34,985 nt of DNA, from NCBI RefSeq assembly GCF_002932875.1, contig NZ_PSWS01000012.1:1-34985 (forward strand). Reading direction: 5' to 3'. Each line of letters opens with the position of its first letter. The first letter of the stretch is position 1. Shown piece by piece: positions 21,108 through 26,972 of the stretch. The DNA is from Rathayibacter tritici. GTDB taxonomy: Bacteria > Actinomycetota > Actinomycetes > Actinomycetales > Microbacteriaceae. The notes under the pieces were generated by a model that was not told the origin of the DNA, ran no database searches, and worked only from the letters and a program-made list of their open reading frames with translations. A program made the position numbers and the translations under genes.

Positions 21108-21767
21108 TCAGGCGTCGGCGGCCGAGATCGCGAGCACGATCGCCGTCAGCGTCGTGCGCAGACGTTCCAGCGACTCCGTCTCGGACTCGTCCTCGAGGAT
21201 CGACTGCTTCACCGCATTGTCGTACCCCGCCACCAGGAGTCGCACCGCGGTCGCCGCCTCCAGCGAGAACTCCCGCCGCACCTGGCGGAGCGCCCCGTGC
21301 ACGATCTGCACGAGCGACGCGTCGAATCCCGCGCGGAAGTCGCGGTACTGGGGTGCGATCCTCGGGTCGCGCAGCGCCAGGAGCTCGAACTCCGACTCGA
21401 CCACGCACCAGCGCCGGTTGTCGGTGGTCGGTCCCTGGAGGAAGTCGAGGATGACCACGGCGAGCGTCTCGGCGGTCAGCGGCTCGTCGGCAGAGACGAC
21501 GCGTGGAATCGTGCGCCCCATCTGCTCGATGAGAGCGGTGACCCGGGCGCCGTTCTCCCGCTCCATCAGCGCGAAGAACAACTCCTCTTTCGTGGAGAAG
21601 TTGGAGTAGAAGGCACCGCGCGAGAATCCGGCGCGCTCGCAGATCTGCTCGACGGAGGCACTGTGCACGCCGGTCTCGGCGAACACGTCGTAGGCGGCGT
21701 CGAGCAGGCGCTCGCGGGTGCGTCCGCGGCGGGAGGTTTCGGGAGCGGTGGGGTCGATCGCGGTCAT
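21108..21767 (-). CDS. TetR-family repressor
   Basis: A 219-residue one-component repressor. The HTH part (about 15-62) reads TRERLLDAAYDVFAETGVHSASVEQICERAGFSRGAFYSNFSTKEELFFALM, here broken only by normal family spacing; the rest is the helical ligand-binding domain. The ATG at 21767 has AGGAGG 5 bases upstream. It is divergent from the MMPL/YhgE operon, and the gap contains four phased palindromes that are its likely operators, one covering its own -10 box. The expected role is repression of the exporter until a ligand binds. Confidence 0.95.
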   Translation of the reverse strand: MTAIDPTAPETSRRGRTRERLLDAAYDVFAETGVHSASVEQICERAGFSRGAFYSNFSTKEELFFALMERENGARVTALIEQMGRTIPRVVSADEPLTAETLAVVILDFLQGPTTDNRRWCVVESEFELLALRDPRIAPQYRDFRAGFDASLVQIVHGALRQVRREFSLEAATAVRLLVAGYDNAVKQSILEDESETESLERLRTTLTAIVLAISAADA

Positions 21768-21932: not shown

Positions 21933-24737
21933 GTGTCGTCGCTGCTCTACCGTCTCGGTCGTCGCGTGTACCGCGCCCACCGCCTCGTCGCCGTCCTGTG
22001 GCTGCTGATCGTGGTGGCGGGCGGCGGAGGCGCGCTGCTGCTCAATCAGGGCACCGACAACACGTTCTCCATCCCGGGCACCCAGTCGCAGACCGCGCTG
22101 GATCAGCTCGAACGCACCTTCCCCCAGGTCAGCGGAACGTCCGCGCGGTATGTCGTCGTCGCGCCTGAGGGAGGCGGCGTCCAGGACGCCGACGTGAAGG
22201 GACCGGTCGGCGACGCGGTCACCGCGCTCGGCGATGTCGACGAGGTCGCGGCGGTGACCGACCCCTACTCCGACAGCGTCTCCGGCACGATCTCCGAGGC
22301 CGGCAATGCCCTCGTCATCACCGCGCAGATGGACGGCTCCGCGACCACCACGAGCCCCGAGAGCCGCGACGCGCTGAAGGCCGAGGCGACGACCCTCCAG
22401 AACGCCCTGCCCGCCGGCTCCGTGGTCTCGCTCGGCGGCGACCTCTTCGCCCAGAACCTGCCCGGGGTGACGATCACCGAGGCGATCGGCCTCGTCGTCG
22501 CCCTCGTGGTGCTCGTGCTCACCTTCGGCTCGTTCCTCGCCGCCGGGATGCCGCTGGTCACCGCGCTGCTCGGCGTCGCCCTCTCGATGTCGGCGATCTT
22601 CATCGCCACCCGCTTCGCCTCGATCTCGTCGACGACGCCGCTCCTGGCCCTCATGCTGGGACTGGCGGTCGGCATCGACTACGCCCTCTTCATCATCAGC
22701 CGTCACCAGGACCAGTTGAAGCAGGGAATGGACCCGGAGGAGTCGACCGCGCGCGCAACGGCGACGGCCGGATCCGCCGTTGTCTTCGCCGGGCTGACCG
22801 TGATCATTGCGCTCGTCGGCCTCTCGGTTGCGGGCATCCCGTTCCTCACCACGATGGGCATCGCGGCTGCGGGCGGAGTCGCGATCGCCGTGGTCATCGC
22901 GCTCACCCTCACTCCCGCGCTGCTCGGCTTCGCTGGCGGGCGGCTCCGGCCCAAGGAGCGCCGCGCGAAAAAACGAGCCGCCAAGGCCGCGGCCGCCTCG
23001 GGAGCCCACGCCGACCTCGCGGCCGTGGAGGACTCGACAGCGCCCTCGCCCGGCGGCCGCGCGCACGCCGAGGTCCCGCGCGGCTTCTTCCGCGGCTGGG
23101 TCCAGGTCGTCACCCGCTTCCCGATCGTCACGATCATCGCGGTGATCGGCGTGCTCGGAGTCGCCAGCATCCCGGCGCTCAGCCTCCGCCTCGCCCTGCC
23201 GGACGCCGGATACCAGGCCGAGGGCACGCCGGCGCGTACCACCTACGACCTGCTCGCCGAGAACTTCGGCGCCGGATACAACGGCCCGCTCATTGTGACC
23301 GGCACGATCATCGGCTCGACCGATCCGCTCGGCCTGATGAACGACCTCAAGGGTGAGATCGAGAAGCTCGACGGAGTCGCCTCGGTGCCGCTCGCGACCC
23401 CGAACGAGACCGCCGACACCGGCATCATCCAGGTCATTCCGGAGGGCGGCCCCGACTCCGAGGCCACCAAGGCGCTGGTCGCCGAGATCCGCGACAAGCA
23501 CGACGACTTCCAGCGGGAGTACGGCGTCGACCTCGCGGTGACCGGCCAGACCGCGGTCGGCATCGACATCTCGGACACGCTCGCCACGGCGCTCTTACCC
23601 TTCGGCCTGCTCGTGGTCGGCCTGTCGCTGGTGCTGCTGACGATGGTGTTCCGCTCGCTCTGGGTGCCGATCAAGGCGACGCTGGGCTACCTGCTCTCGG
23701 TGGGCGTCTCCTTCGGAGCCGTGGCGGCGGTGTTCGAGTGGGGCTGGTTCTCGGACGCGCTCCACGTCGACAAGACGGGCCCGATCATCAGTTTCATGCC
23801 GATCATCCTGATGGGCGTGCTCTTCGGCCTGGCAATGGACTACGAGGTGTTCCTGGTCTCGCGGATGCGCGAGGACTACGTGCACGGCCGCCCGGCGCGC
23901 GCCGCCGTCGAGTCGGGCTTCGTCGGCTCGGCCAAGGTGGTCACGGCCGCCGCGATCATCATGTTCTCGGTCTTCGCCGCCTTCGTGCCGGAGGGGGACA
24001 CCAACATCAAGCCGATCGCGCTCGGCCTGGCCGTGGGCGTCTTCGTCGATGCCTTCATTGTGCGGATGACGCTGGTGCCCGCCGTGCTGCACCTGCTCGG
24101 TGACCGCGCCTGGCACATGCCGCGCTGGCTCGACCGAGTCCTCCCCTCCTTCGACGTCGAGGGCGAGGGCCTGACGAAGGAGCTCGCTCTCGCCGACTGG
24201 CCGGAGCCCGGATCCACCGACGTGATCGCCGCCGAGGGCCTCTGCCTCGACGGACCCGACGGACCCGTCTACCACGACGTCTCGCTGCGGGTCGCGCCGG
24301 GCTCCTCCCTGGTGGTGCACGGCCCGCACCGCACCGGCCGCACCGCACTGCTCCTGAGCATCGCCGGCCGCCTCGCCCCCGACTCCGGACGCCTGAAAGT
24401 CGCGGGCCTGGTCGTGCCGATCCGCTCCGCCGCCGTGCGCGGCCGGGTCGGGCTGGTGCGCCTGGCCGGAGCGGCCGACCCGGTCGCCGACGTGCGCTCC
24501 GTCCTGGAGTCGGCCCCGCCGATCCTGGTGCTCGATGACCTCGACACGGTCACCGATCCGCAACTGCGCGCCGCGATCCGGGCCGAGCTCGACGCCGCCC
24601 GTGCCGCCAACGACGCGTTCACCGTGGTCGCCTCCTCCGTCGACGCTGAGGCGCTCGACGACCTCCTCCCCTCCGACCGCGGCGTGCTCGCGGTCTCCCC
24701 CGCGGCGAAGCGCCGCGCGATCGCAAAGGTCCTCTGA
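21933..24737 (+). CDS. MMPL-family transporter with a degenerate ABC-ATPase-like C-terminal domain
   Basis: A 934-residue inner-membrane protein. Residues 1 to about 735 are an RND-superfamily MMPL exporter: TM1 at about 18-38, first porter loop (FSIPGTQSQTALDQLERTF), first helix bundle with GLAVGIDYALFIISRHQ, second loop, and second bundle with GLAMDYEVFLVSRMRE. About 775-934 is not MMPL: it reads like an ABC nucleotide-binding domain, with Walker A-like GPHRTGRT (797-804; Arg where Lys is invariant) and Walker B-like ILVLDDLD (864-871). Only about 60 residues separate them, and no LSGGQ signature or His switch is seen, so it is probably inactive or a binding module. The start is GTG at 21933 (AGGAGA just upstream). 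The next gene begins 3 bases after the stop. Confidence 0.92.
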   Translation: MSSLLYRLGRRVYRAHRLVAVLWLLIVVAGGGGALLLNQGTDNTFSIPGTQSQTALDQLERTFPQVSGTSARYVVVAPEGGGVQDADVKGPVGDAVTALGDVDEVAAVTDPYSDSVSGTISEAGNALVITAQMDGSATTTSPESRDALKAEATTLQNALPAGSVVSLGGDLFAQNLPGVTITEAIGLVVALVVLVLTFGSFLAAGMPLVTALLGVALSMSAIFIATRFASISSTTPLLALMLGLAVGIDYALFIISRHQDQLKQGMDPEESTARATATAGSAVVFAGLTVIIALVGLSVAGIPFLTTMGIAAAGGVAIAVVIALTLTPALLGFAGGRLRPKERRAKKRAAKAAAASGAHADLAAVEDSTAPSPGGRAHAEVPRGFFRGWVQVVTRFPIVTIIAVIGVLGVASIPALSLRLALPDAGYQAEGTPARTTYDLLAENFGAGYNGPLIVTGTIIGSTDPLGLMNDLKGEIEKLDGVASVPLATPNETADTGIIQVIPEGGPDSEATKALVAEIRDKHDDFQREYGVDLAVTGQTAVGIDISDTLATALLPFGLLVVGLSLVLLTMVFRSLWVPIKATLGYLLSVGVSFGAVAAVFEWGWFSDALHVDKTGPIISFMPIILMGVLFGLAMDYEVFLVSRMREDYVHGRPARAAVESGFVGSAKVVTAAAIIMFSVFAAFVPEGDTNIKPIALGLAVGVFVDAFIVRMTLVPAVLHLLGDRAWHMPRWLDRVLPSFDVEGEGLTKELALADWPEPGSTDVIAAEGLCLDGPDGPVYHDVSLRVAPGSSLVVHGPHRTGRTALLLSIAGRLAPDSGRLKVAGLVVPIRSAAVRGRVGLVRLAGAADPVADVRSVLESAPPILVLDDLDTVTDPQLRAAIRAELDAARAANDAFTVVASSVDAEALDDLLPSDRGVLAVSPAAKRRAIAKVL

Positions 24738-24740
24738 CAG

Positions 24741-26972
24741 ATGGCTCTTCTCTCCCTCGAACGCCCCCGCGGCGGCACGAAGGTGTCCTGGCTGACCCTT
24801 CTCGGGATCGTCCTGGTCCCCCTCGTCATCGGCGGCCTCCTGGTGTGGGCGCTGTGGAACCCCACCGAGCGCCTCGACACGATCACGGCCGCCGTGGTCA
24901 ACGAGGACACGCCCGTGGAGATCAACGGGCAGACCGTGCCGCTCGGGCGCCAGCTCGCGGCCGGACTCGTGACGGGCGGCACCGACTCTGCGAGCCCTGC
25001 CGCCCCCGCGTCCCCCTCGGCGAGCGCGACCCCGGTGCCGAACGTCTCCGGCTCGGACTCGACGGGCAACTTCACCTGGGTGCTCACCGACAAGGACGAC
25101 GCCGCGAAGGGCCTCGCCGATGGCAGCTACGCGACCGTTGTGACCATCCCCTCCTCCTTCTCGGCCGCCGCCACCTCGTACTCCGGCGACGCCGAGAAGG
25201 CGACGAAGGCGACCATCGACATCGCCACCAGCGAGAAGGCCAAGCTCGTCGACGACGCCATCTCGGCCACCGTGACCAGCACCGCCACCTCGCTGCTGAA
25301 CACGCAGCTCACCACCGCGTACCTCGAGAACGTCTACGTCGGCTTCAACACCCTGAACGAGCAGATCGGCCAGGCGGCCCAGGGCGCGGGCACACTCGCC
25401 GACGGCGCCGACCAGCTCGGCACCGGCGCCTCCACTCTCGCCGACGGTACGAGCGACCTCGCCGACGGCATCGATGCGCTGGCCACCGGCGCGTCCTCTC
25501 TGTCGGGCGGAGTCGCGCAGCTCGGCACCGGCGCCTCCTCCCTCGCCGACGGCGTAGGTCAGCTGGGCACCGGTGCGTCCGACCTCTCCGGCGGAGTCGC
25601 GCAGCTCGCCACGGGCGCGCGGGGCTCCGCCGGCGGGGCGACGCAGCTGCAGGGCGGCGCCACCGGCCTGGCGGACGGCCTCGACCAGTTGGCGGCGGGC
25701 GTGCAGAAGACGGGTGAGGGGACACAGCAGGTAACGACGCTCAGCGCGGGAGCGGCGACGGCCACCGCGGAAACCCTGAAGGCCCTCACCGGTGTGCTCG
25801 CGAGCTGCGAGACGGAGCAGTGCAGCGCCGCGAAAGCCGTCATCGCCTCGGCGAACGGGCCGACGGGCGCGGTCACCCTGACCGGGCAGACCGCCGGAGC
25901 GGTCGCCGGGATCGACGCCGGGATCCGCACAGGCAGCGACGGTCAGCCCTCGCTGGTCGACGCGGTCGGCCGGTCCGCCGCGGGCGCCCGCACCCTCGCG
26001 GGCGGGATCGGCCAGCTCTCCGGCGGACTCTCTCAGCTCGCCTCCGGTGCCGAGGCCGCGGCCGGCGGCGCCGCGCAGCTCTCCTCCGGGGCAACCACCG
26101 CCGCGGCCGGCGCCCGCGACCTCGCGACCGGCGCGACCACCGCCGCGGGCGGCGCCGCCGACCTCGCCACGGGAGCGTCCTCCGCCGCCGACGGAGCGGA
26201 CCAGCTCGCCGACGGCGCAAGCGGCGTTTCGGACGGGGCGGTGCAGCTCGCCGACGGCAGTCGCACGCTCGCCACGGGGCTCGACGCCGCCGTCGCGCAG
26301 CTGCCCAGCTACACCGAGTCGGAGTCGACGAACCTCGCCAACGTCGTCTCCGACCCGGTCGAGAACGCGAGGAGTACGAACGACCTGTTCGGGGCGTCCA
26401 GCGTCCCGTTCTTCGCCACGATCGCCCTCTGGCTCGGCGCCCTCGCGACCTTCCTGGTGCTCGCCGCGTTCTCGCACCGCGCGCTCTCCTCCACCCGCTC
26501 CTCCGCGGCACTCGCCCTCTCCTCCTCCCTGCCCGCGCTGGTGATCGGCGTCGTGCAGGGTCTCGCGGTCGCGACCGTGATGAGCAACGTCGCCGACCTG
26601 GAGCCGGGACGCTGGATCGGCTTCGCCCTGCTCTCGATGCTCGCCGGCGCCTCGTTCGCCGCGGTGAACCAGGGGCTCGTCGCGCTGCTCGGAGGGATCG
26701 GCCGCTTCCTGTCGATGGTCGCGGCGGTGATCGGGCTCGGCGCGGGCATCATCTCGACGGTCCCCGGCCTGTTCGACGACGTGCTCGGGTTCCTGCCGCT
26801 GTCGGCGGCGCAGAACGCGCTGTCCGGAGTGGTCGAAGGGACGGAGGGAACGGCCGGCGCGGTCGTCGGCCTGGTGATCTGGCTGCTGTTCGGCCTGCTG
26901 CTGACCGTCGCCGCGATCGCCCGCCGTCGGGTTGTCCCGGTCCGTGCCCTGCATCGCACCGCGGAGGCGTAG
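24741..26972 (+). CDS. YhgE/Pip-type membrane protein with long heptad-repeat region
   Basis: A 743-residue protein with one N-terminal helix (about 17-38), an extracytoplasmic domain beginning ITAAVVNEDTPVEINGQTVPLGRQL, a long low-complexity coiled region (about 205-520) built of LxxGxxx heptads such as LADGADQLGTGASTLADG, and a C-terminal bundle of about six helices (545-735) related to ABC-2 permeases. This is the plan of YhgE/Pip (phage infection protein) family members, found with exporters and type VII secretion genes. It follows the MMPL gene by 3 bases in one operon under TetR control. A Pro/Ser-rich insert (DSASPAAPASPSAS) interrupts the N-terminal domain. Role inferred as a partner of the exporter, perhaps spanning the thick cell wall. 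Confidence 0.9.
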   Translation: MALLSLERPRGGTKVSWLTLLGIVLVPLVIGGLLVWALWNPTERLDTITAAVVNEDTPVEINGQTVPLGRQLAAGLVTGGTDSASPAAPASPSASATPVPNVSGSDSTGNFTWVLTDKDDAAKGLADGSYATVVTIPSSFSAAATSYSGDAEKATKATIDIATSEKAKLVDDAISATVTSTATSLLNTQLTTAYLENVYVGFNTLNEQIGQAAQGAGTLADGADQLGTGASTLADGTSDLADGIDALATGASSLSGGVAQLGTGASSLADGVGQLGTGASDLSGGVAQLATGARGSAGGATQLQGGATGLADGLDQLAAGVQKTGEGTQQVTTLSAGAATATAETLKALTGVLASCETEQCSAAKAVIASANGPTGAVTLTGQTAGAVAGIDAGIRTGSDGQPSLVDAVGRSAAGARTLAGGIGQLSGGLSQLASGAEAAAGGAAQLSSGATTAAAGARDLATGATTAAGGAADLATGASSAADGADQLADGASGVSDGAVQLADGSRTLATGLDAAVAQLPSYTESESTNLANVVSDPVENARSTNDLFGASSVPFFATIALWLGALATFLVLAAFSHRALSSTRSSAALALSSSLPALVIGVVQGLAVATVMSNVADLEPGRWIGFALLSMLAGASFAAVNQGLVALLGGIGRFLSMVAAVIGLGAGIISTVPGLFDDVLGFLPLSAAQNALSGVVEGTEGTAGAVVGLVIWLLFGLLLTVAAIARRRVVPVRALHRTAEA

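What the first reader, a model, noticed from the sequence alone, without database searches (positions are those of the whole stretch)
24237..24737. MMPL exporter fused to a degenerate ABC-ATPase-like domain
The last about 160 residues of the MMPL protein do not belong to that family. They carry GPHRTGRT where a Walker A would be (Arg in place of the invariant Lys) and ILVLDDLD as a Walker B, only about 60 residues apart, with no LSGGQ signature or His switch. MMPL proteins are driven by the proton gradient, so an ATPase-like tail facing the cytoplasm, in an operon with an ABC-2-related YhgE/Pip protein, suggests a shrunken nucleotide-binding subunit that became fused to the pump, perhaps as a regulator or a dock for YhgE.
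Basis: partly seen in the sequence, partly recalled or inferred. Interest (0 to 1): 0.75.

Follow-up and report, generated by a model that had tools for sequence, protein, structure and literature searches.

The report
Proton pump fused to dead ATPase
A bacterial membrane pump carries at its tail the worn-down remains of an ATP-driven motor that, in related bacteria, sits as a separate gene beside a neighbouring membrane protein (YhgE), which suggests that the tail now ties the two membrane proteins together instead of burning ATP.

The parts
21933..24737 (+). MMPL-family (RND) exporter with fused C-terminal pseudo-NBD, 934 aa (GTG start inferred)
   Evidence: Pfam MMPL 2e-86; tail; full-length AF2 model pLDDT 83.2, pTM 0.75, blocks of residues 761-920 at 84-94, last 14 residues low
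24153..24209 (+). junction: DVEGE motif that also ends many untailed MMPLs, then the linker ELALADWPEP
   Evidence: untailed L160-L169 stop 16-31 aa after the end of the MMPL profile match; A3 L4 D6 W7 P8 invariant in the 28 rows of A1
24210..24737 (+). degenerate ABC NBD domain (RecA-like core, no helical subdomain), aa 760-934
24321..24344 (+). Walker A-like loop GPHRTGRT (canonical GxxGxGK[ST] altered at positions 4 and 7)
   Evidence: most conserved 12-mer of the tail in its clade
24462..24521 (+). place where the helical subdomain is missing
   Evidence: between the VGLV strand and Walker B, short tails have a median of 25 residues (18-40); ordinary NBDs 78, separate forms 79, L077 93, long tails 90
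24522..24545 (+). Walker B-like ILVLDDLD (Asp kept, catalytic Glu replaced by Asp)
24741..26972 (+). YhgE/Pip-family membrane protein (ABC-2 related), 743 aa, 3 bases after the MMPL stop
   Evidence: TIGR03061 3.1e-34, TIGR03062 1.2e-23; PF12698 8.3e-14
21108..21767 (-). divergent TetR-family regulator; a TetR-type gene lies within 30 of the 31 short-tail loci L001-L031
   Evidence: PF00440 7.6e-16

Best explanation
The tail is the NBD-like partner of YhgE, captured once by an MMPL pump and then worn down. Shown: NBD fold (predicted); grouping with NBD-like proteins encoded directly in front of yhgE; one fusion to MMPL in the sampled tree; loss of hydrolysis motifs; constant position before yhgE; purifying selection. 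Inferred: the domain, at the cytoplasmic end of the pump, still docks on YhgE's cytoplasmic face as an NBD docks on an ABC-2 permease. It would thus hold the proton-driven MMPL pump and YhgE in one complex and may pass conformational signals between them, without ATP hydrolysis. In the window's clade the retained Arg-type P-loop may still hold a phosphate-bearing ligand; most relatives have lost that loop.
For: Fold. The 31 tail-like places (E <= 1e-11) in the 70 genomes all lie 39-525 bases in front of a YhgE hit on the same strand. YhgE census: 53 of 100 with tailed MMPL in front, 32 with a separate NBD-like gene, 15 with neither; MMPL in front of YhgE without a tail: 0 of 53. One clade of tailed MMPLs, 64 of 84 rows, SH-aLRT 99. 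YhgE-linked domains (106 rows) apart from 16 ordinary NBDs, SH-aLRT 99. Intermediate L077. dN/dS of the tail 0.22-0.49 over 10 Rathayibacter pairs. The untailed MMPLs L160-L179 have no YhgE hit in the fetched stretch.
Against: No interaction was tested; operon position can reflect co-expression only. In Rathayibacter the tail evolves faster than the MMPL core (core dN/dS 0.07-0.19). Tail-YhgE rate correlation given the core is weak in short tails (partial r 0.28, 31 loci) and moderate in long ones (0.53, 32 loci). The helical subdomain, which in ABC exporters helps form the groove for the coupling helix (recalled), is absent here. 15 of 100 YhgE genes of the family and 20 of 29 of the phylum sample have no NBD-like gene seen in front, so YhgE need not have one.
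Confidence: 0.62

Rival explanations
1. Ligand sensor: in the window's clade (Rathayibacter, Cellulomonas marina, one Micrococcales MAG) the Arg-type P-loop binds a nucleotide or other phosphate compound without hydrolysis and gates the MMPL pump; docking on YhgE is secondary.
For: GPHR[ST]GRTALLL is the most conserved 12-mer of the tail in 7 sequences (11 of 12 invariant, first of 177 windows; 34% of the whole tail invariant) and the Walker B DD is kept in them too. Arg-type P-loops also occur in 17 of 45 separate YhgE-linked NBDs.
Against: 31 of 38 short tails and 33 of 33 long tails have lost the loop, so relatives do without it; positions 4 and 7 are both altered; no Q-loop, signature or dimer partner.
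Confidence: 0.2
2. Decaying passenger: the NBD was fused by accident and is drifting; it has no function beyond not harming the pump.
For: In Rathayibacter the tail diverges faster than the core, and motifs are lost in many tails.
Against: dN/dS of the tail below 0.5 in 14 of 14 pairs; in 2 of the 4 pairs outside Rathayibacter it is not above that of the core (whose core frames for L025/L027 include unsure N-termini). Structural residues and the ALADWPEP linker stay (12 invariant columns in 28 sequences). All 64 rows of the tailed clade keep a tail, although rows were partly sampled by the tail.
Confidence: 0.08
3. Active ATPase: the domain still drives MMPL or YhgE by ATP, perhaps with a partner NBD supplied in trans.
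For: L077 keeps GPSGSGKT; 7 of 45 separate forms keep the Walker A Lys.
Against: No catalytic Glu at the aligned place in 117 YhgE-linked domains (45 separate, 33 long, 38 short, L077), no LSGG but one chance string, helical subdomain missing in the window. MMPL keeps both Asp-Tyr pairs of the proton path (D249-Y250, D636-Y637 invariant in A2; role recalled), so it should not need ATP.
Confidence: 0.04
4. Fusion for co-localisation only: the tail meets YhgE but merely keeps two pumps with separate substrates side by side.
For: Constant order MMPL.tail-YhgE.
Against: Not distinguishable here from the best explanation.
Confidence: 0.06

Closest known systems
ABC transporter NBD (PF00005), e.g. 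CbiO, FbpC
   Same: RecA-like core and antiparallel beta subdomain, position of Walker A and B
   Different: no helical subdomain, LSGGQ, Q-loop, catalytic Glu or H-switch; Arg-type P-loop
MMPL / HAE2 family of the RND superfamily (PF03176)
   Same: pump body, both Asp-Tyr pairs
   Different: extra cytoplasmic pseudo-NBD; the untailed relatives L160-L169 stop 16-31 aa after the profile match
YhgE/Pip family (TIGR03061/TIGR03062; TC 9.B.74, homologues in the ABC-2 superfamily per a passage of PMC3924187)
   Same: the downstream gene matches it
   Different: its NBD-like partner lies on the MMPL protein instead of in its own gene; the passages that I read in two papers mention no NBD partner
ABC transporters with degenerate nucleotide sites (MRP1, CydDC; listing only)
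   Same: NBD-derived domain without full catalysis
   Different: there a catalytic site remains in the same transporter (recalled); here none was seen among the operon's genes (TetR, MMPL, YhgE)
MmpL3 with TtfA, MmpL5 with AcpM (listing only: titles and abstract starts)
   Same: MmpL pumps work with accessory or cytosolic partners
   Different: those partners are separate proteins and, as recalled, not ABC NBDs

Membership tests
ABC NBD (PF00005) | RecA-like alpha/beta core plus antiparallel beta subdomain | tested here: met
ABC NBD (PF00005) | Pfam gathering score | tested here: not met
   24.6 bits against 25 for the tail alone; 20.1 in the full frame
ABC NBD (PF00005) | Walker A GxxGxGK[ST] | tested here: not met
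   GPHRTGRT
ABC NBD (PF00005) | helical subdomain with LSGGQ signature | tested here: not met
   short tails: median 25 residues where ordinary NBDs have 78; no LSGG in the window's tail
ABC NBD (PF00005) | Walker B Asp plus catalytic Glu | tested here: not met
   LVLDDLD: Asp kept, Glu replaced
ABC NBD (PF00005) | Q-loop Gln and H-switch His | tested here: not met
   VGLVRLAG and VVASSVDA at the aligned places (read by eye)
ABC NBD (PF00005) | ATP binding and hydrolysis | not testable with these tools
   needs purified protein
AAA (PF00004) | Pfam gathering score | tested here: inconclusive
   23.7 bits against 21.2 for the tail alone, but 19.1 in the full frame; the structure matches shown are ABC proteins, which does not exclude AAA
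YhgE-linked NBD-like family (defined here) | groups with NBD-like genes next to yhgE, apart from ordinary NBDs | tested here: met
   split of 106 against 16 rows, SH-aLRT 99, quick tree; 14 of the 16 ordinary rows come from hits of the tail profile in 8 genomes
YhgE-linked NBD-like family (defined here) | encoded directly in front of yhgE | tested here: met
   window 24737/24741; 31 of 31
MMPL (PF03176) | Pfam gathering score | tested here: met
   290.4 bits against 20.5
MMPL (PF03176) | Asp-Tyr pairs of the proton path (recalled) | tested here: met
   D249-Y250 and D636-Y637 invariant in 29 rows
YhgE/Pip | TIGR03061 and TIGR03062 cut-offs | tested here: inconclusive
   N-terminal model 118 bits over 96.15; C-terminal model 83.8 under 102.2

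The most novel reading that the evidence does not exclude
A hybrid export machine in which the energy source of an ABC-type permease has been exchanged: YhgE, an ABC-2-fold membrane protein, is no longer moved by ATP but by the proton-driven MMPL pump, through the fused ex-ATPase that serves as the mechanical link.
Probability: 0.2. Interest if true: 0.88.

Novelty: new variant of a known kind. Interest (0 to 1): 0.62.

Why it matters
The YhgE/Pip domain was described as lacking a known function (passage of PMC4999554). A frequent NBD-like partner in Actinomycetota (85 of 100 genes in the family sample, 9 of 29 in the phylum sample) makes these YhgE proteins look like ABC-type systems with an unusual, mostly non-catalytic partner. 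The fusion to MMPL then links two transporter superfamilies (RND and ABC) in one operon. The set of states (separate with Lys, separate with Arg, fused and intact, fused and worn down) is a ready series for testing how a motor domain becomes a scaffold.

Tried and rejected
Chance Walker-like motifs: rejected. Ordinary fused NBD: rejected by motifs. AAA domain: the AAA model reaches its cut-off for the tail alone but not in the full frame; the listed structure matches were ABC proteins; not followed further. Annotation or frame artefact: rejected, since the same kind of fusion occurs in 31 of 32 loci (L032 is an ordinary NBD). Plasmid carriage: tblastn of the tail against the plasmids collection gave no match at 1e-5. 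A DNA pattern for the ALADWPEP linker matched 1 of 110 phylum genomes: too strict to inform. Rate correlation of tail and YhgE is not decisive because both share the core's history. The one LSGG-like string in a short tail (L015) lies just before Walker B and reads as chance. L160 has an NBD frame about 2.2 kb behind its untailed MMPL; it reads GPNGAGKT and LVLDEP, an ordinary NBD.

Literature (open-licence PMC full text only): MMPL + YhgE 2 papers, neither titled on this subject, not opened; MMPL/degenerate/NBD/fused/actinobacteria 0; RND/ATP-binding cassette domain/MMPL/fusion 0; pseudo-ATPase/ABC transporter/NBD 0; YhgE or Pip domain 138, 25 listed; two of phage infection protein/ABC-2/YhgE/ATP-binding 265, 15 listed; MmpL accessory terms 250, 12 listed; degenerate nucleotide-binding terms 4. 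Passages read: PMC3924187 and PMC4999554. All other papers: listing only.

Limits of counts. The 100 YhgE genes are the 106 matches with six two-piece matches merged, counted by hand. Motif counts use 45 of 56 separate NBD-like genes fetched: L056 holds two and a name clash in my script kept one (the dropped one reads GQAGSGRT), and the ten came later. One of those ten (L208) matched only the long-tail profile, at 2e-5. The 38 short tails include near-duplicates. MMPL tree: left out were L010, L012, L014, L029, L128, L132, L134, the split gene L008, duplicates of loci (L033-L039, L043), and MMPLs with a core match weaker than 1e-150 (L140-L150, L152, L153, L170); of the 20 untailed rows L173 and L175 have other C-terminal extensions (179 and 104 aa) with no NBD match. 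NBD tree: left out L010, L012, L014, L029, L128, L132, L134, L139, L154, L155, L156; of 20 ordinary NBD regions fetched 14 passed my motif filter, and L032 and L065 were added. The 27 fused places found by the profile in the 70 genomes were shown to be MMPL by fetched loci (6), by PF03176 (3) or by the MMPL core (18 of 18 genomes). Close untailed MMPLs also exist in that family (L151; frames of 780, 782 and 855 aa in G036 and G051, not fetched). The 15 YhgE genes with neither partner may have partners too diverged for my profiles. Tailed rows were partly sampled through the tail or through YhgE.

Full report
What is there. The window holds, on the + strand, an MMPL-family gene (21933-24737, 934 aa with an inferred GTG start) followed after 3 bases by a YhgE/Pip gene (24741-26972), with a TetR gene facing the other way (21108-21767). 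The nearest relatives found are Rathayibacter; the MMPL core is 97% identical over 712 columns to that of R. iranicus (L001). The MMPL body ends at a DVEGE motif; then come a conserved linker ELALADWPEP and a domain of about 175 residues.

It is a family trait. A genome scan with the tail gave 32 loci; 31 are MMPL proteins with the same kind of tail followed by YhgE, from Rathayibacter, Cellulomonas, Cellulosimicrobium, Agromyces, Microbacterium, Leifsonia, Brevibacterium, Paractinoplanes and others, and one is an ordinary NBD. A profile of 28 tails found matches at E <= 1e-11 in 70 of 199 genomes of the family of G001 (the genome of L001; Microbacteriaceae) and in 22 of 396 genomes of the phylum; both counts include separate NBD-like genes.

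The partner is YhgE. The next-best profile hits after the fused tails were not arbitrary NBDs. Of the 16 separate hits in the phylum search, 15 are directly followed by yhgE; the sixteenth (L065) is an ordinary NBD with no YhgE in the 1.8 kb behind it that the contig holds. Coming from the other side, a search for YhgE in 70 genomes of the family found 100 genes in 55 genomes. In front of them lie an MMPL with fused NBD-like tail in 53 (24 short, 29 long form), a separate NBD-like gene in 32, and neither in 15. No MMPL directly in front of YhgE lacked a tail, and no MMPL lay in the fetched stretch of 45 loci with the separate form. In the phylum sample (29 YhgE genes in 18 of 110 genomes) the numbers are 1 fused, 8 separate, 14 in tandem YhgE pairs and 6 others. 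So YhgE does not always have such a partner. Conversely, the untailed MMPLs L160-L169 from the phylum stop 16-31 residues after the profile match, and none of L160-L179 has a YhgE hit in the fetched stretch.

History. In a tree of 84 MMPL cores the 64 tailed ones are one clade (SH-aLRT 99), split into a long-tail group (30 rows, support 75 only) and a short-tail group that also holds L077 (34 rows, 99). L077 is an MMPL fused to an NBD with GPSGSGKT and a full-length helical subdomain: the expected intermediate. In the domain tree 106 YhgE-linked domains stand apart from 16 ordinary NBDs (99), and the short tails form one clade (98). The domain tree does not join short and long tails with each other before some separate forms, so it does not by itself show one fusion; the MMPL tree does. 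The simplest account: a YhgE partner NBD was fused once to an MMPL; later the long forms lost the P-loop but kept a vestigial helical part, while the short forms lost the helical part and mostly the P-loop. These are quick trees with long branches in places; one fusion is likely, not proven.

The degeneracy is not confined to the fusion. Among 45 separate YhgE-linked NBDs, 7 keep a Walker A Lys, 17 have Arg there and 21 have neither; none has LSGG and none has the catalytic Glu. So these YhgE proteins appear to work with an NBD-like partner that is mostly not a competent ATPase even when free.

Selection. dN/dS of the tail over 10 Rathayibacter pairs is 0.22-0.49, against 0.07-0.19 for the MMPL core and 0.19-0.35 for YhgE; four pairs from other genera give 0.20-0.34 for the tail, in two of them not above the core. 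The tail is under purifying selection. In the seven sequences of the window's clade the loop GPHR[ST]GRTALLL is the most conserved 12-mer of the tail (11 of 12 invariant, first of 177 windows; 34% of the whole tail invariant). That argues for a kept role of this loop in this clade, although 31 of 38 short tails do without it.

Most likely working. The proton-driven pump keeps both Asp-Tyr pairs (their role is recalled). Its cytoplasmic tail is a former YhgE NBD. By inference it still docks on YhgE and holds pump and YhgE together, perhaps relaying movement or, in the window's clade, the presence of a ligand. What YhgE and the pump export is unknown. Contact, ligand and substrate are untested here.

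Novelty. ABC NBD, MMPL and YhgE are each known; TC 9.B.74 (PIP) is noted as having homologues in the ABC-2 superfamily (passage of PMC3924187). The fusion, its tie to YhgE and the pseudo-NBD family were not found in the open literature searched (listings only, two papers read in passages), which leaves out most subscription journals.

Noticed in passing
L083, L084, L102, L104, L105, L107-L111, L113-L117, L121 and one of the two separate genes of L056: A clade of 17 separate YhgE-linked NBD-like proteins without a P-loop, mostly with an AETxQRPT-like string at the Walker A place and an S/A-P-D-like Walker B: apparently complete pseudo-NBDs as free-standing genes.
   Followed up: partly
L085-L087, L090-L093, L211: Tandem pairs of YhgE genes without an NBD-like gene seen in front; perhaps a different, NBD-free form of the YhgE system.
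   Followed up: no
L056: Two divergent NBD-YhgE operons lie back to back, one with a P-loop (GQAGSGRT), one without.
   Followed up: no
L015 (record labelled Stenotrophomonas maltophilia) and L008 (MAG labelled Microthrixaceae): L015 groups among Microbacterium in both trees and L008 with Agromyces and Microbacterium in the NBD tree; the labels are probably contamination or mis-binning.
   Followed up: partly
L008 3729-6702: The MMPL frame is split into two overlapping frames, a frameshift or assembly error.
   Followed up: no
L096, L097, L099: Short YhgE-like proteins (417-442 aa from the N-terminal domain on) with no NBD or MMPL seen in front.
   Followed up: no
window 24741-26972: The YhgE protein holds 12 stretches of the xxxLxxG heptad repeat (TIGR03057) and matches the EsaA N-terminal model at 2.4e-14, below its cut-off.
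   Followed up: no
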